64,000 nucleotides of DNA, taken from the NCBI GenBank assembly GCA_944474755.1, contig OX104123.1, positions 21,781,083-21,845,082 of the forward strand, read 5' to 3'. The position numbers and the translations under genes are program-made. Numbering within the stretch: position 1 is the stretch's first letter; every line of letters begins with the position of its first letter. The notes under the pieces were generated by a model, which was not told the origin of the DNA, did no database searches, and saw only the letters and a list, made by a program, of their open reading frames with translations. Positions 1 to 16,900 of the stretch are shown piece after piece. The DNA comes from Limnoperna fortunei. Taxonomy: Eukaryota; Mollusca; Bivalvia; Mytilida; Modiolidae.

Positions 1-3000
1 CAGCCCGGCACTCCGTATTCTTCTCAACGTACTTCTTCAACCAGGGGCTTTGCGTGAACTGGATGGCTCGATGGATTTTCTTCAGCTTCATCCCCCTGGC
101 GAGGTACTTCTTCAGATTCACATAGTGAACCACGTATTTCTCCCGGTCGTGGAGGTTGGCCACCAGTTTTCTTACTCCATTGATCTCCACGGACTCCGGC
201 GCCAGAGGGTAATCGTTATGATGGTCGTGGAGCCCCCTGGGGTACTCGAGGTCCACTTCCAGGATGTAGCCCTTTGCATCCTCCTCTCCGATCGTACTAA
301 GGTCTGGAACCTCCGAGGGATCCGTCCACTTGAAGTCTCCCGTGGGTAGAGTTCGCATCATCGCCCATCCGTAGAGGTTGTTCGCGTCCAGGTACATGAG
401 GTAGTTGGTCGGTTTACTTGGGTCGTGCCCCGTCACGTAGGGATTGTTCGCTCGGGCATATCTCTTTGACGCCATAGTGAGACCTCCTCGGATGCCCTTT
501 TCGATCATGAGTAGCATATCAGGATCGGAGATCAGATCTAGTTGGATGTCGCTGACCTTGAGTGCTGCATCATAGGCAAGCCCTGGTGCGGTGTAGTAGT
601 GCGCCGGGTCGAGTCCATAATGCTTCAGGCAGATGTTGCGGAAGTTCTCGAAAACATCAGCGAGCAAGATCACGTCCGTCTTCAAGTATAGGTCGTGATA
701 CTCCCGCATGGTCGAGATTCCCCAATCCCTCCAGACCTTCTGAGCATGGGCATAATCAGCGTCACTGATGTCTTCCTTCGTGAGCGCGCTATAGAAGTCC
801 TTCTTCGCCGGTAGTTGGGGGTCCTGGAGTCTCTCAAACTTATCCATGTAATCGTATGGATATACCCCCTTACGTAGCAGTAGATCCAGATTGCCTTCCT
901 TCTGCCCTTTCGCCGTGAGTGGTATGTCATATCCTTCATCCATCTCTTTGACTGTGAAGGTAATGTCCGCTCCAACGACCTGCTTCACCTTCTCGCTGCA
1001 GCCTTGGAGGATTTCAGTCAGTCTGGTGTGCGTCATCTCGTTCTTGTGAATCATCAATCCATCAAAAACGAGCGCTCCCACTTCGATTCCTTGTTCAGTC
1101 AGGTAATCGAAGGCTGCCATCAAGGCCTTGTTTTCCAGGGAGCACATGACGTAATTCACGGTGGTTCCCTTGATGTTGTAGTCTGTGAGTCGCCTTGCCT
1201 TGGATTCGCGGGCACGCTCATGTAGGTCCGGGTTCAGCTTGGTCACCTCCTCCATGATAGTTCTCATTCCCTCATAGTACTCCTTGAACCAAGCGGGTGC
1301 ATCCTCCTCCAGTCTGATCGCCTTCCCGTTAATGATGGCTAGGAGGGTAATCTTGGCTTCGTCCCGCGTGATCCCTTGGTATGCCATCAGATCTGCGGTC
1401 AGTTTCTCCCGGTTGGCAATGTAAGCATCGAGCCCGGTGCACTCAATGCCGTTTTCATGGCAGTACCAGGAGAGTAGGGTTGGGTGCGCGTTCTTCATGT
1501 CGATATCGATCATGTGGTCTGCGCAGAGGGTATGGCGGATGCGGCGAGTCATATTCTGCAGACCCATCTTCTCGCTGGTCCAGTATCTTCCGAAACCGTT
1601 CAGCTGGTGGTATCGCATGGGGCGTTCACCCAGAGCGTTGGTGCGATCCAGGTAATCTTGCAGTAACGTCAGTTGGGCATCCTTTTCGAGCTTCCGCCCC
1701 TTGATGTATCGACTCCCAAGTTCATACTCTTCCGGATGCGTCACGATGTACTCCAGTTTCTGTCGGTCGATGACCTCGCGTAGGGTAATGTTTCGACCAT
1801 TCTCCGACGTGAACTCGCCCACCTTGAAGAGCTCGGGGTTCATTGGCACTGCACCAAATTCTCGCCGCATGTCGGTGAATGCCTCGACCGGCGTTGCCTC
1901 GACTAGGCTCTGGAGACTGGCATTCATGAATTTGAAGCTGTCAATGAAGCGCAAGTATAGGTATTGCGTCTTCGTCTTTCCTTTCTTATCCTTGTACTCT
2001 CCAATCGGTACGCTCTTCGTGAAGGAGATGTAGCGCTCTTCCGTGTTGGGGATGCAGTCGATCTTACCTTCGGTTCTGCCCAGGTTCTTGATGAAGAGGT
2101 GACTGTCATACCCCGCCAAGTTATGGAAAATCACGGGGACGAATTTGGATGCCTTGAAGTTCAGATTGCAGTCGCTATGGGCTGCCCCTCTGAACTTACC
2201 TGTGAAGTGGCAGTGGTCCTTCACTTTGTCCTCGCCGAGCTCTTGGTGGCAGATGGTGCAGTGGGTGGTTTCCTCGAATGCTTTCTTGTCCTCCTCTGTC
2301 ATCACCATGGGCTTCTTGAAGTCGTTCTGTTGGTAAATGTCACGGACGTCTTTCGTCAACCGATCCACAAAAAACTGGGCCACGTCTTCTCCTTCCTGCT
2401 GCATGGTGTAAATCACCGGTTTCTTTGCGTATACGGTCTCGTCGAAGCACTTGATGTAGTAGCAGAACCCCGATGGTATGTGCTTCTGGAGGATTTTGGT
2501 AGCTCCACCTACCGCGGGTTCCTCTTCCATCTTCACTTTGGTTGTGAAGCACTCGAAATCGGCGTAGACCACGAATGGTACTTTCATCGACCGGGCATGG
2601 TTCTTGAAACTGACCTTACTTCCTTCGTCCGGCATCTCAACTTTTACTGCCTGCTTCTGGCTGCAGTATTCCATGTGACGGTCCAGGAGATCTTGCCGGG
2701 TGAAATGGTTTAGGCACCGGCGGCAGAAGTAAGCTTCCCCATCATGCTTGGTCACCTGCGCCGTCAAGAGTCGTGAGAGGTTCTTTACCCAACTGTAGTG
2801 TTTTGTCTCTTCATCCCCCAATAGCATGAGGTCCACATGCTTCGCTCCGGTGTGATCACTATTGGATATCCTCAGCGGGTAGACGCCTTCATTCTTCTTA
2901 TTCTCGAACCCAAAGACGTTCACCTTGATCCCTTCGTTAAGTCTCTCGAACTTATCAATCGCCCGGAGTGAGACTGGGAATTCTATCGTATCGAACCTTA

Positions 3001-4024
3001 GTTCATCCTTCCACCTTGCATACTGGCCCACGCGGTTAGCATGCTTCTGATCCACCTCGTCGTGGTGAAGCGCCGAGAGGATTGCCCATCGAAAGCACTC
3101 CTGATCGTCATTCTGCACATTCACGATTGCCTTTTTGCCCGCAAGCTTCTTGGGCAGGGGTATGTAAGAGCTGCCGGCCAGTGGCTTGAATTCGTTCAGT
3201 TGAATTTCCATATTCTCAATGCGCCCAAAGGTCCACCCACTTCCATTTTCCTGGAAATTCGCCATGCTCTCCTTGATCTTGTCCATCATCTGTTCTATCG
3301 CCTGATCCAAATCTACCGACTCAGTGATGGTGAATACGGCGGATCGGAAATATGTATCAGCATTCTCGTTCTCACCTGGATTCGTGGGGTTGATCTTCAC
3401 CATCTCCACCTTGAGGACTAGTTCCACTTTCAACCCCTTCTTCTCTGCTAGACCTGCTGCAATCGTATTTCGAATGGGTTCCCAGCTCACTTGAATAAAC
3501 GTCTCGACGTCGTGCTTCTTCAGAGGTTTGATGATCACTGTGCCGAACACTCCCCCCAACGCCTCTCGCTTATCCTGCACATCGATCTCATGCCCGGCAT
3601 CTTCAAGGCTCTGTTTCACCCGCTCTACTAATTCCTCCTTTCTCAGTTTCGAGTATTTGGTAACCCCCCTTCGCCTAGCCATAGCCATGAGCTGCTTCTT
3701 GTTGAGCACCTCTTGACGAATGAACCGTCGACCTGTGGACGATTCAATGAGTCTCACCAAGGCAGTCTTATTCTTCCTACTGTACCCCCTCAACCCCTCC
3801 TCTTTAGCAATTTCACGAAGCTTCCGGACGGTTTCAACTACCCGGAACTTACCCCCAATCGGCTGATCATCTTCGTCTTGCTGTGGGGTGTTATGGGTAT
3901 GTCTCCAGCAAAGACCATTTCTACCCGGTTTGCTTCTGCAGAACTGACCTTTCTTCCTTTTCAAGGGTGCTCCGCAGGTTCGTTGGACTCCCCCCACTGA
4001 CATCTCAATAGTTTCAGTGTTCAT
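1..4024 (-). CDS. Protein-primed family B DNA polymerase with an inserted family-A-like (TV-Pol-like) domain, partial
   Basis: Replicative polymerase of the element, 1341 codons without a stop; the C-terminus lies off the left edge. The start at 4024 is chosen because a TAA stop directly precedes it in frame; Met8 is an alternative. Visible order: Cys/His cluster (C17, C29, C39, H42); two SAP-like helical repeats (about 60-95 and 107-140); C2HC zinc finger (C434, C437, H450, C454); Exo I D489-x-E491; endonuclease-VII-like Cys/His segment (C589, C592, H604, H606, C619); Exo II FHNLAGYD (N635, D640); FIDSFKFM near 695; a foreign insert of about 320 residues (724-1042); KGVYPYDYMD; Exo III YLKTD (Y1113, D1117); GIRGG (1177-1181); palm motif A LDANNLYG (D1213). 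Motif B and the DTDS motif C lie beyond the window. The insert carries DIDMKNAHP (840-848) and FDG (987-989), signatures of TV-Pol polymerases. PolB and Polinton-type assignment are near certain from the motifs; the identity of the insert is an inference. Confidence 0.93.
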   Translation of the reverse strand, partial: MNTETIEMSVGGVQRTCGAPLKRKKGQFCRSKPGRNGLCWRHTHNTPQQDEDDQPIGGKFRVVETVRKLREIAKEEGLRGYSRKNKTALVRLIESSTGRRFIRQEVLNKKQLMAMARRRGVTKYSKLRKEELVERVKQSLEDAGHEIDVQDKREALGGVFGTVIIKPLKKHDVETFIQVSWEPIRNTIAAGLAEKKGLKVELVLKVEMVKINPTNPGENENADTYFRSAVFTITESVDLDQAIEQMMDKIKESMANFQENGSGWTFGRIENMEIQLNEFKPLAGSSYIPLPKKLAGKKAIVNVQNDDQECFRWAILSALHHDEVDQKHANRVGQYARWKDELRFDTIEFPVSLRAIDKFERLNEGIKVNVFGFENKKNEGVYPLRISNSDHTGAKHVDLMLLGDEETKHYSWVKNLSRLLTAQVTKHDGEAYFCRRCLNHFTRQDLLDRHMEYCSQKQAVKVEMPDEGSKVSFKNHARSMKVPFVVYADFECFTTKVKMEEEPAVGGATKILQKHIPSGFCYYIKCFDETVYAKKPVIYTMQQEGEDVAQFFVDRLTKDVRDIYQQNDFKKPMVMTEEDKKAFEETTHCTICHQELGEDKVKDHCHFTGKFRGAAHSDCNLNFKASKFVPVIFHNLAGYDSHLFIKNLGRTEGKIDCIPNTEERYISFTKSVPIGEYKDKKGKTKTQYLYLRFIDSFKFMNASLQSLVEATPVEAFTDMRREFGAVPMNPELFKVGEFTSENGRNITLREVIDRQKLEYIVTHPEEYELGSRYIKGRKLEKDAQLTLLQDYLDRTNALGERPMRYHQLNGFGRYWTSEKMGLQNMTRRIRHTLCADHMIDIDMKNAHPTLLSWYCHENGIECTGLDAYIANREKLTADLMAYQGITRDEAKITLLAIINGKAIRLEEDAPAWFKEYYEGMRTIMEEVTKLNPDLHERARESKARRLTDYNIKGTTVNYVMCSLENKALMAAFDYLTEQGIEVGALVFDGLMIHKNEMTHTRLTEILQGCSEKVKQVVGADITFTVKEMDEGYDIPLTAKGQKEGNLDLLLRKGVYPYDYMDKFERLQDPQLPAKKDFYSALTKEDISDADYAHAQKVWRDWGISTMREYHDLYLKTDVILLADVFENFRNICLKHYGLDPAHYYTAPGLAYDAALKVSDIQLDLISDPDMLLMIEKGIRGGLTMASKRYARANNPYVTGHDPSKPTNYLMYLDANNLYGWAMMRTLPTGDFKWTDPSEVPDLSTIGEEDAKGYILEVDLEYPRGLHDHHNDYPLAPESVEINGVRKLVANLHDREKYVVHYVNLKKYLARGMKLKKIHRAIQFTQSPWLKKYVEKNTECRA

Positions 4025-4033
4025 TTATATATA

Positions 4034-4057
4034 TACCCTATCTTTCAATGTTTCTAA
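4034..4057 (-). promoter_or_regulatory. Promoter-like motif upstream of the PolB gene
   Basis: Read on the minus strand: TTAGAAA, 8 bases, GATAGGGTA, then a TATATATAA run that leads straight into the PolB ATG. The same two blocks with the same 8-base gap precede the 145-codon gene at 4696-4719. The rest of the two upstream regions differs, so the shared blocks are probably a cis signal for the element's own transcription programme. Confidence 0.6.
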
Positions 4058-4198
4058 ACTAAATTTTTCAATTTTAGGAGGCAGTCGATCCCTCGTATAC
4101 CTTCTCTATCAATCCCTTCACATGAGAGTTCGTCTGCACCACCCAATTTTCCTTTCCGAATCCTCACTGATTGCCACCCCCGCCTTGGATACCTTTTT

Positions 4199-4231
4199 TT
4201 TTTCCGATGAGGAAATCCCCCATCGGAAAAA
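4199..4231 (-). terminator. Stem-loop after the 145-codon gene, possible 3'-end signal
   Basis: Perfect 11-bp arms (TTTTTCCGATG and CATCGGAAAAA) around an 11-base loop. In the direction of transcription the hairpin begins 18 bases after the stop codon of the 4250-4687 gene. Hairpins just after stop codons mark mRNA 3' ends in mimiviruses and their virophages; applying that here is inference. The remaining 4058-4249 spacer shows no convincing gene. Confidence 0.45.
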
Positions 4232-4249
4232 GTTTCTACCAACCTGTTG

Positions 4250-4687
4250 TTACCAGATTTCAACGTCGAAGTACTCATATCCAGTCTTCTTCGACCTCTT
4301 CTTGCCTTTGTTATTAATCTTGAGAGTATTCCAATTTTCCTTTCGTATTCCCTTCAACACTCCTATCACCCTCGCGCACGCCCAGACCTTGAATGTCTCG
4401 CCCTCACTCTCCCATGTCAAGATCACGCCTGGTCCATAGGCTCCTTTTACCTCCCAGCCATCTACAACGTTGAATGTCTCCTCCGGTAGTTCTCTCCACT
4501 TCAGGACTGGTGATCCACGCTTGACCTCGGTTCTCTTCCTTCCCTCTCCATCGCTTTCCTGAATTTCAGGTTCCTTTGCAGTTTCAATCTGCAATGTCTG
4601 GAAGCTCTTCTCAATCTCTTCAATACCTTTACATCGGGGCTGTAGGAGTCTGACGTGTCTGACCACGTTGACTGTTTCAGGATTCAT
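4250..4687 (-). CDS. Small Polinton-element gene, 145 aa; possible OB-fold ssDNA-binding-like protein
   Basis: Intronless ORF upstream of PolB on the same strand, with similar GC-rich codon use. It starts at an ATG 8 bases after the promoter-like motif and ends at TAA 4250-4252. The N-terminal 65 residues are charged and low in hydrophobic content. The C-terminal half alternates beta-like hydrophobic stretches (ELPEETFNVVDGWEVKGAYG, GVILTW, FKVWACARVIGVL), followed by a lysine-rich loop and a short terminal strand. That pattern resembles small OB-fold single-strand-binding proteins, which would suit a replication-linked gene next to PolB, but no diagnostic motif proves it. No signal peptide or membrane segment is seen. 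That it is a real gene is well supported by the shared promoter motif and the following hairpin; its function is not established. Confidence 0.7.
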   Translation of the reverse strand: MNPETVNVVRHVRLLQPRCKGIEEIEKSFQTLQIETAKEPEIQESDGEGRKRTEVKRGSPVLKWRELPEETFNVVDGWEVKGAYGPGVILTWESEGETFKVWACARVIGVLKGIRKENWNTLKINNKGKKRSKKTGYEYFDVEIW

Positions 4688-4695
4688 ATTGTATC

Positions 4696-4719
4696 TACCC
4701 TATCGTTCCTTCTTTCTAA
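4696..4719 (-). promoter_or_regulatory. Promoter-like motif upstream of the 145-codon gene
   Basis: Minus strand: TTAGAAA, 8 bases, GATAGGGTA, then GATACAAT and the ATG at 4687. Same blocks and spacing as the motif in front of PolB. The remaining 130 bases to the element end at 4849 show no gene and presumably hold the terminal repeat. Confidence 0.6.
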
Positions 4720-4849
4720 GGTGTTATTTCAATTTCTGATTCCTGTGTCCGGTTTTGTATGAGGGTTTGATCCGTTTGCACAAAACCTTGATTTTTCCGG
4801 ATTTCAAGCAGACTTTTTCCTTGTGGGGCAGAACTGTCATTTCCATACT

Positions 4850-4855
4850 ACTTAT
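4850..4855. other. Candidate target site duplication (ACTTAT) at the Polinton boundary
   Basis: First six host bases after the element terminus. Copy 2 of the host gene has a similar uninterrupted site (AATTAT) at the aligned position. Polintons duplicate 6 bp; the partner copy would lie at the other end of the element, outside the window. Confidence 0.4.
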
Positions 4856-4945
4856 CTTTAAAATTGTTTTTCTTAGTGTAATTCTCTAGTTTTTATAATA
4901 TCTGTCAACAGGAAACCCGATTGCGATCGTTTGTGTGCAAAAAAG

Positions 4946-7900
4946 ATGTGCAACTATCTTCAACTGGTGTCAGTTTTGACGATTTTTTCAGGTATATCCC
5001 TTAACTTCTAATTACAACGTTCCCAAGTGGTCATTTAAGAGCTTAGGATATTAAATCTATCAAACACAGCCAACTTTTACATCAAAAGTTTGATTTTTCT
5101 TTCGTTTTGGGAACAAACGGACTTGCTATGTTTGTCTGATACAAAATACTTTTTTAGTTTGTTTTAGCAATTAACATTACCTACAGTGTCGTTACACTTA
5201 ATTCTACAGATTAATTAGTTGCTTGCTTAACTTCCATTGAGCTGTATTTTCGCAATAATAATCCAATTCAAAAGTGTCCAGAACAAGAAAGGGGTCCTTG
5301 TTGCGCAAGGAGTGTTGACTGTAAAAACAAATTGCCCACTAATGTGTGCAAATATACCTACCGTATTACAATAATGAGATTGCGTTTCCTTTCCGCCTCC
5401 GTCAAAAAGACGTCAATACATAAGTTTATTTTTATTAAACCTAATATTGCTTAAGCATTTTATAATAACACGTGACCACTTTATTTTATATCGATTTATG
5501 TAGTGTGTAGCGGTTACCACTGTCCACCTCCGACATTCTTGTTTATAAACGGTAGAATGTTAGACTTCAGCTGCCCGCCGGGGTATAACGTCCTCAGAAA
5601 CGGTACATCAGGATGGTGTGTACCCGGTAAGTTCTAGTTATTCTTTCGCGAGATTTGTGTTGTTCAATACTACATTTTTAAAGATTATTTAGGCTATAAC
5701 ATTAGTTTTATGTAATTAGTTCAGCTTTGTTTTGTGTATTAAACTTAACGAAGACGCTTATTATATAATAAGTGAACCACAAAAATCGAAAAATTACATG
5801 ATACTTTTATGTCAGTAGTAAAAACTATTGGCTAGTAGCAAAGCCATGTGTATCTGTTTGGGTTACGTTGTAGTATCCAATACCGCCATACAAAACGACA
5901 ATAGGTGGTAATAAATAGAGCGTTTTATAAAATAATGTCGTGAATGAATGTAACGGTAAAACTAAATACCAAACGCCAAGGAAACAGTCAAAAGAGATAA
6001 ATCAAAGTCCAAGAAACTGGCAAATGTTAGAACCAACAACCAAACATAAAGCAATGGTCCTGACGTTGTGCAGGCATTTCAAACAAAATGGAAATGTTTG
6101 AGAATTTACTTCAGTTCGAAAGGTAAAACGAGAAATATTTCAGCTATGTCCCATACATAAACAAATTAGCAACAATAAATCAACAGTCAAAGAGGAACGG
6201 ACAAATGTGAACGAAACTTAGACTACATTTATATTGAAAACAAATTGAAATAGATTGATTGAATGTCTGCTTTACGTCCAGCGAGCAGTATTTCAGCTAT
6301 ATTCAGGACGGGAACAAGTTAAAAAATAATAAATCAACGGAAAATGGGGGTTGGGTTGGATAGATAACAGGGAATAAATTTAGACTGCCACTGGAAAAGT
6401 ATGGAGTTTTGGGTAGGGGCGGAAATTTTAGCTATTTGTAGCGGCTACAATGAGCCTACTCTTTTTCGAATCTACAAAAGGGGTCTTTATCGTGCAAGGA
6501 GCGTGGCACACTCCAAACACGTTACCCAATACGCTCCGCGGTCAGGCTTTCCGTATTATGACCTGGCAACCCCCAACGAGAGGGTCTCCATTATCCACCG
6601 GCCGGGGACGCGCTGGGCTGCTCTGTGGGTCGAGCACTGGGAACGCTCCCAGTATGGTCCCAGAAATTGCAATAGAAGAAATGTTGACATGAACTTAATC
6701 ATCATACATATATTATTATGACTAACTATGTTGAATAATATTTCCTCAGAACTCAGAACGCATGCGACATTGATATTATAATTATTTAACAAATATGAAA
6801 GAACAGCAAAGTAACATAAATAGTTGTGAAATTTACTCCGTTAATTTGAATTTCAGCATTGTTCAGCTTAGTTATGGAGGCGTTTTATTATTTGATATAA
6901 GGGGCTGTTAAGGTAAAACACGACCTTCTCAATGTTTGTAGATTTAAGTCCGAGTCGACTAGAGCATTGACACAGTAACAGGCAATCTAATCGCTGACAC
7001 GCTGATCAAAAGTAGATAACTAACTACTCGGCCGCCAAAGCCGATAGTAATTTAAGAAGAATCAAATTTGCAAGAAAAAATGATCTCAGTATTCAGGAGA
7101 AAACCTATCGTTACACAACTGGCGTAATCACTCCGTACTGAATTGTGTGGTTTGAAAAAGAGCTACGGATTAGTTATTTTGTGTTGTTTTTTATTACTTT
7201 TACATTTGATCGAAATAATGCAATGCTTGACATGCTTCAAATTATTGATTGATATTGAATTTTCGCTTAACTTCCAGCGGGCAATATTACAGTACTTGAG
7301 ATTGAAGACGCAACACTTTTATCAATCAGTCAGCGATCCGTCAGCGTTCCAAAATCCGTCACCAATCAGTTATCAATCAGTCAGATCAGTCAAATCGTTC
7401 CCAATCCGTCAGATCGTTCCCAATTCGTCCATCCGTCAATTGACGGATTTGGAAAGATTTGACTGATCTGACGGATTGATTTGGACTGATCGCTCCAATC
7501 CGTCCATTTAACTTCCGGTTAGTAAAATTAATATTTCGAAATGTGAAAATTCGTTTCACTCGCAAATATTAGAAGTATAAAAATGTCAACTGTTATGTCC
7601 TCATTGATGGATCGTTTTATCTAATATTAAGGCTAAAACTGGTCTAAAGTTATTAATTAAAAAAAATGGAAATTCCCCCAATCTATTACCAATGCATCTG
7701 TGACGAAATATAAACATTACATAGTGTAACAAAATAATTAAAACAAAGTAAATTTAAAAACGCACACACACAATGACTTTAAAAAAGCATCTAGCGTTTC
7801 AAGGCGCACGTCCGTATTTTGAAAGCGGAAAACGTCTAAAACTGGTCTAAAGATATTAATTAAAAAAAATGGAAAATTCCCCCAATCTATTACCAATGCA

Positions 7901-10900
7901 TCTGTGACGAAATATAAACATTACATAGTGTAACAAAATAATTAAAACAAAGTAAATTTAAAAACGCACACACACAATGACTTTAAAAAAGCATCTAGCG
8001 TTTCAAGGCGCAAGTCCGTATTTTGAAAGCGGAAAACGTCTAGTCTAAAGTTATAAATGATAAATGGAAATCCCCCCCCACCCCCCCCCCACGAAAAAAA
8101 TCTATCACTAATGCATCTTTGACGGCATATAAACATCACATAGTGTCATTTTATTAAAAAATAATTAAAGAAAGAAATTAAAAAAAAACCACACACACAA
8201 TAAATTCACAAAATATTTGACATCGCATGTAAAGGCGTACATCTCGTATTGGTCTTCGAAAAGTTTTAAAGCGAAAAAGCGAGAAACACGAAAAACGTGA
8301 ACGCGAAATCGTAACATTTTTCCACTTCGCCTTTTCGCGTTAGCATTATATGTATGTTTGAAGTTTGTTTAACACTATTTTTAAAAAATTATATTAGTTT
8401 ATATAATATGACGTCGAGTGTTTATTGGGAAGAGCTGGAGTACCCAACGAAACAGCAAAGTTTCGACAGGAAAACTGGTGCTCTTTGCAAATTTATAGGG
8501 TTGTGTCGAGCACACCATCTCGCTGTTAGGATCAAACATACAACTTGGTAATCAATAATAGGTTACTGCTACCTTAACCTCCGAGGTCGGGTCGTGGTTT
8601 TTTTTTATTGTAAACGCTTAAAAAGATCATTGGTCGTGGTTTGATCAGTTTTTTTCTTTGCCACAGTTCCTATGAATTCCGGTGTATAAGAATAAGATTT
8701 ACGACAAAAGCGAAAACATCTATTTATATATTTTATTAACTACCTCATAGTGTCAGATGAATTTACACAAATTAAATAAAGAATAAACTTATGTGCCACA
8801 GTTCCTAAAAATTCCGCTGTATAATACTGAATAAGATTCACGACAAAAGCAGAAATATCTCACTGTGTCACATGAATTTACAGAGAATTCAATCTCAAAT
8901 AAAGAATAAGGGGCCTCGTTGGCCGAGTGATCAAGGTAGTACAAGTCTTATGTTGATTGAACACTTTAAATCATTGTACATACCCTTGTCAGGGAGCATT
9001 CATGCGGGGGTGTGGTGGGCGAGACCCGGAATTTTGCAAAAGCATAGATAACGGGAGGAGTTCGTCTACTATTGATCACGTGGTCTGTCAACACAGAGAT
9101 TGTGGGTTCGATTCTCACTGCAGGCAGGGTGTATTCGACTCCAATCTTAATTGACAAGGATTTTCCTACCGCAGGTCGGGGGTTTTTCTTCGGGTACTCC
9201 GGCTTCCTACCACAATAAAAACACCATTCAAACAAACAAACAAATAAAGAATAAACTACTGTGCCACAATTCCTAAGAATTCCGGTGTATAATACTGAAT
9301 ACGATTTACGACAAAAGCGGAAACATCTATTTATATATTTTATTCACTATCTCATTGTGTCACATGAATTTACACAGAATTAAATCTCAAATAAAGATTA
9401 AACTATACTAACAGCGTTTGTATATCGAAGCTTATGAGTTAAAAATGCGAACATGTAAGCGTGATACGAAAATCAATTTTGCTTTCGCATTTTAGCCGTC
9501 GCAATTGTTTATTTTACGATTTCTTTTAAAGTCATTCTACAATTAATGATATATAAGTATAAACGGTTTCCTTTGAATTGGGAAATACTTGAAATTGGTT
9601 GATAGTTTAACAGAGCTGCCAAGCGCGTCCTAAGCTGGCAGACATGGGATGTTCTCCCGTTATTTATATTTTTTTTTTGGGGGGGGGGGTGGTTCAGGTC
9701 ATATTAAAATTGCCGCGAACCATAGTGACATGTTTAGAGAGTGTCACGCTCCTTGTACGAAAAAAAAGTAAATCTTACTCCCCAACCCATGCCCCATATT
9801 TTTCAAAATTGCCCTTTTGTCCATCTTTCTCTAATTGATTGAAGGAGCCGAGTGGTGATGTTAGTTCATCAACTATTGATCACGTGGTCTGTCAACACGG
9901 AGGTTTCGTGTTCGAATCTCACTGCAGGCAGGGTGCACTCGACTTAATTGAAAGGGAGCCAGTTTTCCTACTGGAGGACAGGTGTTTTATCCAGGTATTT
10001 AACTTATTCTCGTTATGAATAGAGCTGAAATACTCTCGCTGAAAGAAAAGCAAACAATCAATCAATACAATAAGTTATTGTTTAAATTGATTGATTGATT
10101 GATTGATTGATGTTTAACGTCCAGCAAGCAATATTTCAGCTATATTCAGGACGTGAACAATTTTATAAATTGATGATGTTTAGTAATTAGAAAGTTGGCA
10201 TAGAAACAACCCTGTCGAAATATAGTAAAACTGTAATCTCACACAATAGTATGAGGGTATATACACATAAAAATAACGTGATTAACATAATAAAATATGA
10301 AATAACAGCATAGTTATGATACAAGATTATATTTTATTATACAAATTAATTTCTGTTAAGAACTGTAGAATTTTGTCGCCAGCGACAGTTGTAAACAAAT
10401 TAAAGTAAGAATCCACAGTATAAAAACATTCCCGAATGTGGGCCACATCCACACAGTCCATCAAGACATGCCTGATTGTGTATGGACAGTTGCATAGCAC
10501 ACACTCGGGTCGTTCATCGTTATTTAAAATATAACTATGAGTCGTCCTGGTATGACCAAGACGACACCTGGTTATAACAACTTGGTCTCGACGACTTCTA
10601 AAACAATTAAAATTATTTTTGTGAAGTAGTGGCTGGATCTCATGAAGTTTGTTATGAACCTCTAGATACCAACCACTCTGCCACAAACGAGAAATATATT
10701 TAAAAATTAATTCTTTAAAATCAGTAAAAGGTATGGCACAATTAATAATATTGTTATTCAAGGCCTTTTTGGCCTCCTCGTCCACGACTGTGTTCCCATG
10801 GATTCCCACATGGCTTGGGATCAAGAAAAACACAACCTCTTTACCCAAAGCTACAAGGGCTTTGTAAATTTGAATAATTTTTAAAATATTAGGGTTCATA

Positions 10901-13900
10901 ACTTTGAAGTTTTCAATAGCAAGAAGACATGACAGAGAATCGGAGCAGATAATAAATTTGTGCTCGTCTGACGAAGCAGCTATTTTCATTGCAAGAAGAA
11001 TAGCTTGCGCCTCAGCAGTAAATACAGATGAGGCAGACGGGAGACGACGAGTTTCAACACGCTCTCCGAAGACAGCGGCTGAAGCAACTTTATCTTCGTC
11101 TTTTGACCCGTCTGTATAAATAGTACTATAATCAGGATAACACGATTTAATTTCTGCAAAATGTTGTTGTATTATTAAATGGTTTGTGTCGGACTTTTTA
11201 TATTTTCTTAGATCATAAATAAATACTGGTTTGGGGTTTAACCAAGGAGGATTATGTGGAATTTCAATAGCAGCAATTTCATCTAAATTTATACCAGAGT
11301 TGTTCAAATGAGGTTTTATTCTGATTCCAAAAGGTTGAATTTTATTTGGATGTTTTTCAAAAATATTTTCGTAAAGAGGTTTGAAAACACAGTCGTGGGC
11401 CGGGTTGCCAGGATACGCCTTCAATTTGGTTGCATATTGCAAAGCGAGCTTAACTCTTCTTTGATACAAAGAAGGCTCGTTTGCTTCTACATATAAACTA
11501 TTTACAGGTGTGGTTCTAAAAGCTCCAAGACATAGTCGCAATCCCTGATGGTGTATAGTATCAAGGATTTTGACATACGACTTGCGAGCAGAACCATAAA
11601 TAAAACAACCGTAATCCAATTTCGATCGAACCAGCGATCTGTAAAGATTCAGTAAAACATCGCACTCAGCACCCCAGTGGGCACTGGATACGACTTTTAA
11701 AATATCTAATGCTTTAAGGCATTTATTTTTTAACATTTTGATATGGGGTAGAAAGGTTAGCCTAGAATCAAATATGAGACCAAGAAAAGTAGTTTCTTTT
11801 ACAATTTTGATAGGATTATTATATAATTTTAATTCGGGGTCAGGATGCATCTTTCGTTTATTACAAAAATGCATCCCAACGGTTTTTACAGTGGAGAATT
11901 TAAAACCATTCTCCATTGCCCATTTCTCTATTCTATTTAAACATAACTGGAGTTGACGTTCAATATTATTCATGTTTTTTCCTCGGTAACATATGAGGAA
12001 GTCGTCAACATAAAGAGAACCATCAATATTATCTTTCAAAACCTGAGCAAGGCTATTAATTTTGATACTAAATAAAGTGACAGAAAGGATGCTTCCCTGA
12101 GGAACACCCATTTCCTGTTCAAAAGGGTCAGATAAAGTAGAATTGACCCTAACTTTAAATTCTCTGTCAGATAAAAAGTTTGAAATAAAGGTAGGAAGTC
12201 TACCTTTCAACCCCATATCAAAAAGATCTTTTAAAATACCATATTTCCATGTTGTGTCATACGCTTTTTCTAAATCGAAAAAGACAGACACAACATGCTC
12301 ATTTTTTGCAAAGGCGTTTCGAATATACGTTTCGAAACGTACAAGATGATCTAGGGTACTTCGCCCTTGTCTAAAACCACACTGAATATTAGAAAGTAGA
12401 TTGTTGGATTCTAAAAACCAGACAAGGCGATCGTTGATCATCCTTTCCATGGTTTTACAAAGACAGCTTGTGAGGGCTATAGGCCGATAGTTGGACGCTT
12501 CCGAGTGATCTTTTCCTGGTTTTGGAATAGGCACAACAGTGGCCATTTTCCAAATAGATGGTAAGTCACCCGTTTCCCAAATGTTGTTAAGAAGATTTAG
12601 AAGACATTGGAGAGAAGATTGTGGTAGATGTTTGAGAAGTTGATAATGGATGTCATCTGGACCACATGCTGTATCGTGAGATTTGTTCAATGAAGTTTTT
12701 AGCTCTTCCAAAGAAAAAGGTTTATTATAATCTTCTAAATTTTTTGACTGGAAATTGAGCTTTGATTTTTCTTTTTGAATTTTGATCCGCTGAAAAGTGG
12801 GATGATAATTTTCAGCAGATGAGTGTGTTGCAAATGTTTCGGCCAATTTATTTGATATGTCTGACTCTGATGTTAACAAGTCTTGTCCATCCTTTAAATG
12901 ATGGACATTTACTTTACTGTTTTTACCTTTAATTTTACGAATCATGTTCCAAATGTTATTCATGGGGGTATGGTTATTCAGTTTAGAAACAAAGTTACGC
13001 CAAGACGTGCGTCGTCTTTGTTTCGTTACCCTGCGAGCTTTCGCTCGAAAAATTCGGAAAAGGTTAAGATTATTTTGAGTTGGGTGTTTATTAAAGCGTC
13101 TTTCGGCCTTTTTCCGGTCTTTAATAGCGTCCTCACAGCTGTCATCGAACCATGGTTTACTAGGATGTTTTGGATTTGTCGAGGTCTTAGGAATAGTTTC
13201 GTCAGCAATTGAAATAAGTGTTTCATTGAATTTTAAAATTGGATCAGAAATAGTTTCAAAAGTATCCGAGTTAAGTCGCTCTATACAGAGTTGTTCAAAT
13301 AGAGGCCAATTGGCCTTGCCAAATTTATACCGAGCGACTCGTTCTGTGTTTGAAGAGTGTAAAGATTCCAAGATAATGGGAAATGATCACTGCCACAGAG
13401 ATCGTCATGGACTTTCCATGAGAAATCGGGCAACAGAGAAGGATCTGCTATTGTAAGATCAATAGCCGAATATGATCCATTCCCAGGATGTAAATATGTA
13501 TTTGATCCATCATTAAAAATACACAGATCTTCCTGATTCATTAAGCCTTCAATAATTTTACCTTTATCGTTTATTGTGTTACTGCCCCATAAAGGGTTGT
13601 GTCCGTTGAAGTCCCCAAGTAATATATAAGGGGCCGGAAGCTGATCAGTAAGATGTTTCAACTGATTTAAATTTAATGAAGAATTTGGAGGGATATACAC
13701 AGAGCATAAAGTAATTGTTTTGTCTAAAGATATTCTAACAGCAACCGCCTGAAGATCAGTGTCGAGATCTACAGGGCTATGTAGAACTTGGTCTTTTACA
13801 AGAATGGTAGAACCGCCAGCAGCTCTATCATTCTCGTCTACATATGTGCTGTATATAGAGTAGTTTTTTAAAGATATGTTATCACTTCGTTTTAGGTGGG

Positions 13901-16900
13901 ATTCTTGGAGGCAAAATGCAACAGGAAGAAAGGCTTGAACTAATAAAGTAATTTCAAGAAAATTAATCTTAAGACCTCGACAATTCCATTGTATTAATGT
14001 ATCCATTATGGTCTGCGAATAGGGGAATAGTTGACAGTTTTTTGGGGCTATTCCGCCGGTTTCTGCTGGGGGACCTACTTTTAGATCCAGTATCTGGGGG
14101 TAGTGTATCCATGGGATCGCCCCAGATAGTAGTGTCTAGATGATCTAGACTTCCAAACCTGTTGTGGACCTTAATGGGATCTCTCAGCAGTTTTGGAGTA
14201 CGATCTCCTTTTTGATTTGAGTTTTTATTTGAATTTGAATTGGAGTGATTGAGAGGGTGTTGAAGACGTAGTAGATGCCGAAGGCGTAGAAGTTTGAGAT
14301 GCCGAAGTTTTTCGAGAGGATGTAATTATTTTATCAGTGGTTTGAGCCGGTAGTCTTGTTGGGTCTTTTTGATCTATAGGCCAGGTGATCAAAGTTTGCG
14401 TTTCTGATGTTACATAAACGCGTTTGGTCACACTGGCGTATGATGTGGCAGAAGATGATGGATTACTCGCCGAACTGTACTGACGACGAGCCTCAGGGTA
14501 GCTGATGTTTTTTTCGATTTTTAATTTTTGAATGTCCTTCTCTTTTCTAAAGTGTTGACAGTCTTTTGAGGAGGACATGTGGGCTTCACCACAGTCAGCA
14601 CATTTAGGAGTTTTAGTACAGGTAAAGCCCTCATGTCCTGGCTCTGCACATCGAAAACATACGAGTGATCCCCTACACTGTCCTTTTCCGTGTCCGAATT
14701 TCTGACATTTAAAGCAGCGCACAGGGTTGGGAATGTATGCGCTCACTTTAATGTTTTGGAGACCGATTTTGATAGATTGGGGGACAGTTGGGGTGTTGAA
14801 ATTCAGAAGGAAGGTGTTCAGTTTAACCTGAACACCTTGTCTGTTGGCAATAAATCTTTAAACTTTTGTAATTCCCTGAGGTTGCAATTCCGTGCAAATT
14901 TCCTCGTCAGTAAGTTCGGCGAGATCATCGTCACGATAATGAATGATTCCTTGACTTGAGTTTAATGTCCTATGGGGGGAGGCCGAAATTTCTAAATCTA
15001 TAATTTTGGTTAATTTAAATAAGTTCAAGGATTGGTGTTTTTTGTTGCATTCAATGAGAAGAGCACCAGATTTCATCTTGGTGACATTCTTGACATCTCC
15101 TGCACAACCTTTTATCAATTTTTCAATAACGAATGGAGAGACTTTAGTTATTGGTTTACTAGGATCTTTGCTCGATAATACAATAAATCTTGACCAGAAG
15201 TCTTCCTCAACCATTTCTTCAAGCGGCAAGTCATTTTTTCTTTTTTTTGGACCATTTTTTATTTGTGTTTCAGAAGCCATGATGAGAAGAATGCGGTTCA
15301 CCACCCTTGTCACCCACCCGCCACGGAGTGCCAACAGGGGCGATGCTTGGTCTCTGCGGATAACCAGCAGAAAGCATCGGGTGTTCCAAGGGTGGTATAC
15401 TCAAATAGATGAATTTCTTCACGAACGTAAGCTTCGTGCCAGAGTTAACTGGCGAAACAACCGTTCGAAACTCTGTCTACTTGATTGACCCATGAGCCAC
15501 CGCCTTCTTAACAGCTTGTAACTGAACAAGTTTTGTAGTAAGATTTACAAGATATGATCAAGTGATCAGAAGAATGACGACAAGCTTGTTAAGGGCTCGG
15601 CATGACCAGCCGATTGACCGAACCGGGTCCATCCGGTCTCCCGTCTAGTTGAAGTCAGGGCCAAAGTGGTGTATTGAAAATTAAACCCGCTGACCCGCAC
15701 TAATGGATGCAGCAGAGAGTGATCTCTCAACCACCAGGATCCCTTCCTCCACCATCACGGGTTGCAACACACGGCAAACATGTCGCCTCTATAAAGCTGA
15801 GGAAGCTTTGCCCTTCAGCCACCGCCTTCTTTGTGAATCCTTAAAGGAAGCTGTCTATCAACTGGTTAATACATTTCATGGAATAGTTTGAAAAGAAATA
15901 AATGTAATAGAAAAGCTAAAATGAGAAGGATTCACAAAGGACAAGACGTGACATGCCGATTCATCGAAGTCAGGGCTAACTCGATTTCCCGTCTAGAAAA
16001 AGTACGGGTTCAGTAGGTTATCGGGACCGTTTACCCGGCCTACTGAAGTCCCGTCCTGTAATCGACACGGGTCGCAACACACGGCAAGTGTTGCCTCTGT
16101 TAGCAGACTCTTACTGCAGGCTGAGGAAGCCGTGGGCTTATTCTCCTGTGCCCCGGGTCCCACACGGGGTTTGTTTAAATTGAATGACACTCTTTTAAAG
16201 GCAAGTTTTGACATGGTTCTGTTTCATCGACATCATGACACTGTAATGACAATGTTAAGACCTAAACAATTTATTACGTTTTGTTAAAAAAATTACTATT
16301 TCGTACTGAAACATGTGTCTATCTGTAACACATTTTTACGCTTAACCTCAGTATTCGCAGACAATTCTCCCCGGCGTTATTGGGGCCTAGGTGGCTGATT
16401 GGTTAGTCATCTACTAGTTGTCACATGCCTGTCAACAGGTTGCCGATTTTCGAACGACTGCAGATAGGGTGCCCCCGACTCCACTTTAATTGACAAAAGA
16501 CTGTCGGTTTTTTACCTGTACTCCGGCTTTCTCCCACCCCACCCCCAATAAAAAATGGACGCCATGAAACAGATGGAGCAATCCAGCGTAATTTATGTAT
16601 ACTTTTCTAAACAAATTTTATTGCCTGTCCAATAAAACCTGCGACAAGAATTGCTGTATATTTTACAATACAACTTTTGTTTAGTAAACAATGCGTTTTA
16701 ATTGACAATGATTGTTTAACAGTTGAACAATTGTTATACACAACAGTTTTATAATTGTATTTAAAATGTTGTAGACAAAATAAAAACACGCAGGCATACA
16801 TTTAAGTAACTAATAATGATGTCAAAAAGAGGCCACGTTCTTTCCTAAATGTGAAATAAATCTGTTACTAATTGGGGGAGTCGGATCGGCTTAATAAATG

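What the first reader, a model, noticed from the sequence alone, without database searches (positions are those of the whole stretch)
857..1856. A second, family-A-like polymerase palm inserted inside a family B polymerase
Between Exo II (N635/D640) plus FIDSFKFM and the KGVYPYDYMD-Exo III block, this PolB carries about 320 extra residues (724-1042). Related Polinton polymerases, as I know them, have only a short linker there. The insert reads GRYW (812-815), RRIRHTL (827-833), DIDMKNAHP (840-848), an NREKL...GITRDEAK helix (871-891), INGK (898-901), ENKAL (964-968) and FDGLMI (987-992). DxDxxN-x-HP and FDG are the metal-binding palm signatures of TV-Pol, the superfamily A-related polymerase of transpovirons and virophages. 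All 1341 codons are open and the junctions read through, so it is one fused protein. One chain would hold a protein-primed PolB with exonuclease plus a second polymerase or primase-like centre. I know of no described Polinton polymerase with this layout.
Basis: partly seen in the sequence, partly recalled or inferred. Interest (0 to 1): 0.92.

Follow-up and report, generated by a model that had tools for sequence, protein, structure and literature searches.

The report
Family-A polymerase nested inside Polinton PolB
A virus-like mobile element in what is probably a bivalve genome carries a DNA polymerase with a complete second polymerase of another family inserted inside it, with the key catalytic residues of both kept, which matters because no paper we found describes such a two-in-one replicase.

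Summary
The minus-strand ORF 2..4024 (1341 codons, cut by the window edge) is a Polinton-type family B polymerase. Between Exo II and Exo III it carries about 320 extra residues where eight aligned relatives have 16-37 in all. The insert is a TV-Pol, a minimal family A polymerase, homologous to TV-Pols of helicase fusion proteins. Its model (pLDDT 91) matches Klenow, pol theta and T7 polymerase. The catalytic aspartates and template arginine are kept in all 16 aligned members of its clade, 15 of them with PolB flanks. It is as conserved as its host enzyme (82% against 79-80%). Of 105 TV-Pol relatives listed, 30 also carry PolB sequence, 28 of them bordering the insert at the same site; two others have it at a second site. 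A relative modelled as one chain matches both family A polymerases and phi29 polymerase. The inserts form one clade nested among origin-binding-helicase TV-Pols. Nine literature searches found no such polymerase. Most likely it is a bifunctional replicase; that the inner centre primes or fills gaps is inferred, not shown.

The parts
2..4024 (-). Polinton-type family B DNA polymerase, 1341 codons, 3' end beyond the window
   Evidence: relative P0002 of 1644 aa, 81% identical over the searched region
917..1810 (-). TV-Pol core (residues 739-1036): minimal family A polymerase inserted between Exo II and Exo III
1811..1891 (-). N-terminal junction (residues 712-738), less conserved, in part of low model confidence
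875..916 (-). C-terminal junction (residues 1037-1050), less conserved, in part of low model confidence
1580..1591 (-). GRYW; R813 is the invariant arginine, taken as the TV-Pol beta-hairpin arginine
   Evidence: motif definition in PMC2579912
1481..1507 (-). TV-Pol motif A DIDMKNAHP (D840, D842)
1325..1366 (-). TV-Pol fingers RxxxK...NG (R887, K891, N899, G900)
   Evidence: RxxxK definition in PMC2579912
1058..1066 (-). TV-Pol motif C FDG (D988)
2552..2566 (-). host PolB Exo I (YADFE)
2105..2125 (-). host PolB Exo II (HNLAGYD)
674..700 (-). host PolB Exo III (YHDLYLKTD)
368..388 (-). host PolB polymerase motif A (DANNLYG)
2162..2302 (-). Endonuclease VII-like zinc/HNH segment of the host PolB (just below Pfam's cut-off in this copy)
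   Evidence: PF02945, 22.5 bits, cut-off 23.6; 26.9 bits in P0002
2663..2725 (-). C2H2-like zinc finger of the host PolB
   Evidence: pattern match
3092..3112 (-). NDDQECF, candidate catalytic loop of the vOTU-like domain described for Polinton PolBs
   Evidence: pattern match only; domain description in PMC11071308
3599..3697 (-). Rho_N (SAP-like) domain, the better-scoring of two stretches
   Evidence: PF07498, 39.8 bits for the whole protein

Best explanation
This is a nested double replicase of a Polinton (Maverick) element. The outer enzyme is a protein-primed-type family B polymerase with the 3'-5' exonuclease motifs intact. The inner one is a complete TV-Pol (a minimal family A polymerase), set on flexible junctions into the loop between Exo II and Exo III. 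Shown here: the homology, the fold, the conservation of the catalytic residues of both centres, the protein-level conservation of the insert, and its recurrence in other elements and at a second site. Inferred: the inner centre is active and serves the same replication. The likeliest work is to make primers or to fill gaps on single-stranded DNA exposed by the outer polymerase's strand displacement, so that not every strand must start from a protein-primed end; tethering to an exonuclease might also give this otherwise proofreading-less polymerase editing in cis. The donor was probably a TV-Pol of the kind fused to origin-binding-protein helicases, found also in giant viruses, from which the polymerase part alone was moved into PolB.
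Against: No activity was measured. CCPol alone could not prime without its partner MP, and no MP-like part was looked for here. The insert-bearing PolBs are scattered among insert-less ones, so most sampled Polinton PolBs do without it. Some members of the clade have changes at conserved but not metal-binding sites: P0007 has PP for HP and K for E250, P0188 has S for N251, P0190 has NR for NG, P0187 has Q for R173. The whole-chain model is only moderate (pLDDT 69.1, pTM 0.60, 284 of 1162 residues under 50) and does not fix how the two polymerases sit. The modelled relative P0010 reads TDTDR instead of TDTDS at PolB motif C. A sequence profile of the family did not by itself find family A polymerases among PDB sequences; that link rests on the fold and on the published TV-Pol analysis.
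Confidence: 0.6

Rival explanations
1. Tolerated passenger: an active TV-Pol that spreads between PolB genes because it sits in a loop where it does little harm, by recombination or homing-like transfer, without serving its host enzyme.
For: Two insertion sites, both in loops of about 20 residues. Insert-bearing PolBs are not one clade on the exonuclease-side flank (p-AU 0.031) while the inserts are one clade (100/100). Homing endonuclease insertions in Polinton PolBs are on record (PMC11071308 passages).
Against: The palm-side flank does not reject one clade (p-AU 0.256). No endonuclease or self-splicing part was recognised within the insert. Full conservation of the metal-binding residues is more than tolerance needs. 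Insert-less relatives of the P0003/P0010 branch were not sampled.
Confidence: 0.25
2. Dead structural insert: the TV-Pol fold is kept as a DNA-binding or spacer domain but no longer polymerises.
For: No activity data exist for any insert. TV-Pols differ from classical family A enzymes (NG in place of the YG recalled for the O helix; CCPol lacks a catalytic glutamate).
Against: Both motif aspartates, the hairpin arginine and the fingers lysine are unchanged in 16 of 16 rows of the insert clade, 15 of them with PolB flanks.
Confidence: 0.08
3. Intron, intein or other element removed from the RNA or the protein.
For: It sits in a conserved gene and is missing from most listed relatives.
Against: It is conserved as protein at 82%, like its flanks. 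No donor-like or acceptor-like pattern at the borders in a simple scan. No intein family matched. The same domain is a normal N-terminal part of helicase proteins.
Confidence: 0.04
4. Assembly artefact joining two unrelated genes.
For: The window was not checked against reads.
Against: Other proteins carry the same junctions, some on contigs of megabases.
Confidence: 0.01

Closest known systems
TV-Pol-S3H (PolA-S3H) replication proteins of Sputnik-type virophages and Polinton-like viruses
   Same: Same polymerase domain with the same invariant residues; known from PMC2579912 (text), PMC3671162, PMC4642659 and PMC12220804 (passages)
   Different: There the domain is N-terminal to a helicase; here it lies inside a family B polymerase. 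PMC2579912 states that TV-Pols never show fusions to nuclease domains; here it sits within a 3'-5' exonuclease domain
TV-Pol fused to an origin-binding-protein (PF02399, SF2) helicase
   Same: Nearest TV-Pols by tree and identity, 38-47% over the aligned part for P0015-P0030; a Pyramimonas orientalis virus protein named for that helicase domain matches the insert's fold
   Different: No helicase part here; no PolB there
Polinton/Maverick protein-primed PolB (TP-vOTU-Exo-palm), PMC11071308 (passages)
   Same: The outer enzyme: Exo I-III, Pol A-C, phi29-like fold
   Different: The eight insert-less members aligned have 16-37 residues at the site
Helicase SF1-pPolB fusion of Oxyrrhis marina PLV (PMC12721341, outline and passages) and the Tlr1-type pPolB-S1H
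   Same: Multidomain fusion of a Polinton-related pPolB
   Different: The partner is a helicase placed at an end of the chain, not a second polymerase inserted within it
HelPrimPolB group of B-family polymerases (PMC7544198, one passage)
   Same: A PolB in one chain with a primase-polymerase domain
   Different: PrimPol is added N-terminally together with a helicase; here the partner is of family A and inserted
CCPol of SCCmec (PMC7581432, abstract and passages)
   Same: The one biochemically studied TV-Pol, according to that paper of 2020
   Different: A stand-alone gene that needs the separate protein MP to prime

Membership tests
TV-Pol | Two conserved metal-binding aspartates in an RRM-like palm | tested here: met
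   D840 (with D842) and D988; 61 of 61 rows
TV-Pol | Absolutely conserved arginine from a beta-hairpin before motif A | tested here: met
   R813 invariant in 61 of 61 rows; the model has strands 86-93 and 100-102 around it. The match to the published arginine is by position, not by superposition
TV-Pol | Fingers with an RxxxK motif | tested here: met
   R887-K891; K in 61 of 61 rows, R in 14 of 14 site-I rows and 1 of 2 site-II rows; in the helicase-fused rows R is often K
TV-Pol | N-terminal thumb of two antiparallel helices | tested here: inconclusive
TV-Pol | Family A polymerase fold | tested here: met
   Foldseek and VIA matches to Klenow, pol theta and T7 polymerase
TV-Pol | Primase and/or polymerase activity | not testable with these tools
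   needs biochemistry
Protein-primed family B polymerase of Polintons | Exo I, II, III and Pol A, B, C motifs | tested here: met
   Exo I-III and Pol A in the window; Pol B and C lie beyond the edge and are intact in P0002
Protein-primed family B polymerase of Polintons | phi29-like fold with TPR1 and TPR2 | tested here: inconclusive
   Five phi29 polymerase entries aligned over 403-461 residues in a relative's model; TPR1 and TPR2 were not inspected separately
Protein-primed family B polymerase of Polintons | N-terminal terminal-protein and vOTU-like domains | tested here: inconclusive
   Only a vOTU-like catalytic-loop pattern was seen; no fold test
Polinton/Maverick element | Integrase, capsid and packaging genes with terminal inverted repeats | not tested
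   The element runs out of the window at position 1. Of the window's other ORFs, five were scanned with Pfam and none matched such a gene. The window's genome could not be searched

The most novel reading that the evidence does not exclude
TV-Pol has been transplanted into protein-primed PolBs at two different loops, creating a new class of nested replicase with two active polymerase centres of different families and one exonuclease on a single chain. This lineage of animal mobile elements would then combine protein priming with its own primer-making or gap-filling, using a polymerase module taken from giant-virus-type origin-binding-helicase proteins.
Probability: 0.5. Interest if true: 0.92.

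Novelty: new variant of a known kind. Interest (0 to 1): 0.82.

Why it matters
Both parts are known, but a complete polymerase of one family nested inside a polymerase of another is not in any paper found in nine searches. It runs against the published generalisation that TV-Pols are never joined to nuclease domains (PMC2579912). It links Polintons with the replication genes of virophages and giant viruses through a transferred domain. It also gives a testable answer to how a protein-primed mobile element could start strands away from its ends: the two active sites can be assayed separately in one protein. If active, it would be a naturally evolved two-polymerase enzyme.

Tried and rejected
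Rejected: an ordinary PolB subdomain (insert-less relatives); a routine part of Polinton PolBs (118 of the 120 nearest listed lack it; 3587 further hits were not listed and not examined); chance motif matches; the weak PDB sequence matches to ketol-acid reductoisomerase and transcarbamylase and the weak Pfam matches DUF3155 (E 0.084) and NeqB_N (E 0.27), both under their cut-offs, which the fold does not support; intron or intein.

Led nowhere: IMG/VR scan with the insert alone, no match; IMG/VR scan with alignment A1 gave 5 loci on 4 contigs at 26-33% identity, whose gene context was not followed; GTDB genome contigs, 117 pattern matches, none a relative; phage records, none; Pfam and PHROGs do not name the insert; profile A1 against PDB sequences gave 6 matches, all outside the polymerase part of the profile (helicase and primase-helicase regions); Rfam, none. 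The Foldseek PDB job for the whole-chain model was not taken; VIA-align was used instead. The window's own genome was never searched: the genome search answered busy. So copy number, element ends and host were not established.

Limits: the protein searches collect only candidates sharing short words and of limited length, so counts are lower bounds, and the 105 relatives include near-copies. The insert-less sample is biased to the window's nearest relatives. Host-tree results differ (p-AU 0.031 on one flank, 0.256 on the other). For the exonuclease-flank tree 2 of 31 rows (P0005, P0188) were left out for short coverage. Alignment A1 holds the window's insert and 60 of the 105 relatives, chosen by hand. 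Group labels in the trees are mine, from precomputed Pfam where given: 'S3H' is the remainder and includes rows without PF19263 (such as P0049, P0060, P0062, P0064), and P0022 is counted as origin-binding type without a Pfam label. 'PolB-site I' includes P0190, which has no PolB flank. For one search, 8 of 61 rows were dropped: 6 for long branches, and P0044 and P0211, two origin-binding rows that fell beside S3H rows. With all 61 rows the origin-binding group is also broken, but the AU test was run only on the reduced set. P0202, with an S3H Pfam label, falls in the clade of origin-binding and PolB types.

Full report
WHAT IS THERE. The minus-strand ORF 2..4024 is open for 1341 codons and runs off the window's left edge. 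It has two Rho_N stretches and an Endonuclease VII-like segment (the latter just under Pfam's cut-off), a C2H2-like finger, Exo I, Exo II, Exo III and polymerase motif A. Motifs B and C are beyond the edge; in its closest relative, P0002 (1644 residues, 81% identical over the insert region), all six exonuclease and polymerase motifs are intact.

THE INSERT. Between residues 711 and 1051 the window protein has 339 residues. In eight insert-less PolBs the same interval has 16, 19, 20, 21, 21, 21, 21 and 37; in six other insert-bearing PolBs it has 329-390. The quoted motifs are at the quoted residues. The domain that recurs elsewhere is residues 739-1036, window 917-1810. Codon-position composition is close to that of the flanks, and no stop falls in frame against 21 and 12 in the other frames.

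HOW COMMON. A search with the exonuclease region (residues 430-720) gave 3707 PolB relatives. Of the 120 listed, P0002 and P0004 carry the insert; the other 118 show no trace of it at E <= 1, and their PolB match runs past the site (116 of 118 across profile positions 645-715, the other two to 701 and 708). Two searches with the inserted domain itself listed 105 different relatives. By a PolB profile 30 of these 105 also carry PolB sequence. In 13 of them PolB pieces lie on both sides; the upstream piece ends at profile position 665-681 and the downstream one starts at 670-683. Fifteen more are partial and show one border, at 676-679. The last two are P0194, whose insert runs short, and P0224, a scrambled gene model. 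So 28 of the 30 border the insert at the same site. Among the remaining relatives many are helicase fusions by their precomputed Pfam labels: origin-binding-protein type (PF02399) or S3H type (PF19263).

A SECOND SITE. P0011 has the same domain in another PolB: its PolB pieces match profile positions 875-1104 and 1126-1232, with the TV-Pol between, just after motif C (DTDS) (most sensitive settings; the default settings did not show them). P0187, 77% identical to P0011 over the searched region, starts just after that motif and has the same stretch before and after the domain as read by eye. So the domain has entered loops of about 20 residues at two places in PolBs.

SELECTION. Window against P0002: exonuclease part 79% (221 of 281), TV-Pol core 82% (244 of 298), palm part 80% (234 of 291), junctions 75% (18 of 24) and 57% (8 of 14), N-terminal 66% (192 of 291). 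The insert is kept like the catalytic core of its host, while the C-terminal joint drifts most. Against eight other insert-bearing relatives the core is 58-62% and the palm part 55-58%. Codon-level tests need DNA of relatives, which was not available.

ORIGIN. In a 61-row tree all 16 domains of PolB type form one clade (100/100), the 14 at site I a clade within it (98/96), and the two at site II another (100/99). After dropping 8 rows, the 16 origin-binding-helicase TV-Pols are not one clade without the PolB inserts (p-AU 0.009): the inserts come from within that type. Host PolB trees put insert-bearing enzymes in more than one place. Holding them together is rejected on the exonuclease flank (p-AU 0.031, 29 of 31 rows) and not rejected on the palm flank (p-AU 0.256, 31 rows). 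So transfer between PolBs is likely but not proven.

HOST. Three of the 105 relatives carry an organism's name: Mytilus coruscus (P0190), Mytilus edulis (P0224) and a MAG of Candidatus Thiodiazotropha (P0189). Thiodiazotropha is, from recall, a lucinid-clam symbiont. No relative was found in prokaryote species genomes or phage records at the sensitivity used.

MECHANISM. Shown: two polymerase folds, both sets of catalytic residues, protein-level conservation, recurrence. Inferred: both centres work. The only TV-Pol with biochemistry according to PMC7581432, SCCmec CCPol, extends primers, needs both metal-binding aspartates, lacks an editing exonuclease, and primes de novo only with its partner MP (abstract and passages). 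By analogy the inner centre is a DNA polymerase; priming is plausible but would need a helper or the host chain to bind the template. A role in priming or filling single strands exposed during strand displacement is the best guess. Editing in cis by the surrounding exonuclease is a second, untested possibility.

KNOWN OR NEW. Papers seen in passages: PMC3671162, PMC12220804, PMC4642659, PMC11071308, PMC11071296, PMC12721341 (outline 28, passages 29), PMC7544198, PMC8097293, PMC7581432. They describe TV-Pol or PolA with S3H, pPolB with SF1 helicase, PrimPol and helicase with PolB, and homing-endonuclease insertions in PolB. None of the passages describes a family A polymerase inside PolB, and nine searches listed no such paper. 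The library lacks most subscription journals, so print elsewhere is possible. The domains are known; the nested architecture appears new.

VERDICT. Probability that this is a TV-Pol fused in frame within a PolB: about 0.97. That it is a working bifunctional replicase: about 0.6.

Noticed in passing
window 10327-14006 (-): A non-LTR retrotransposon: ORFs with reverse transcriptase plus RNase H (PF00078, PF00075) and an endonuclease (PF14529, PF03372), the two ORFs overlapping in different frames.
   Followed up: partly
window 7633-8042: Two tandem copies of a 204-base unit, 98% alike.
   Followed up: no
window 4001-6000: GC falls from 0.51-0.53 in the polymerase to 0.38 and then 0.36, so the element's right end may lie near here; no terminal repeat could be tested because the other end is outside the window.
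   Followed up: no
P0190 (Mytilus coruscus gene model): A public bivalve gene model joins a MAM domain to the TV-Pol domain without PolB; the join falls near the domain's N-terminal border, which looks like gene prediction across an element.
   Followed up: partly
P0015-P0030, P0201, P0203: TV-Pols of about 1000 residues, nearly all labelled as fused to origin-binding-protein helicases (PF02399); not described in the passages I read.
   Followed up: partly
P0010, P0014, P0197: Insert-bearing PolB clusters with 320, 328 and 333 member sequences, suggesting large expansions in some genome.
   Followed up: no
P0204: A site-I insert with a much longer branch (0.92) in a PolB close by eye to the ordinary kind; possibly a separate acquisition.
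   Followed up: partly
L002 and L003: The same IMG/VR contig (41,736 bases) gives a TV-Pol relative near both ends, in opposite orientation, with loci of equal length and scores: long inverted terminal repeats or an assembly artefact.
   Followed up: no
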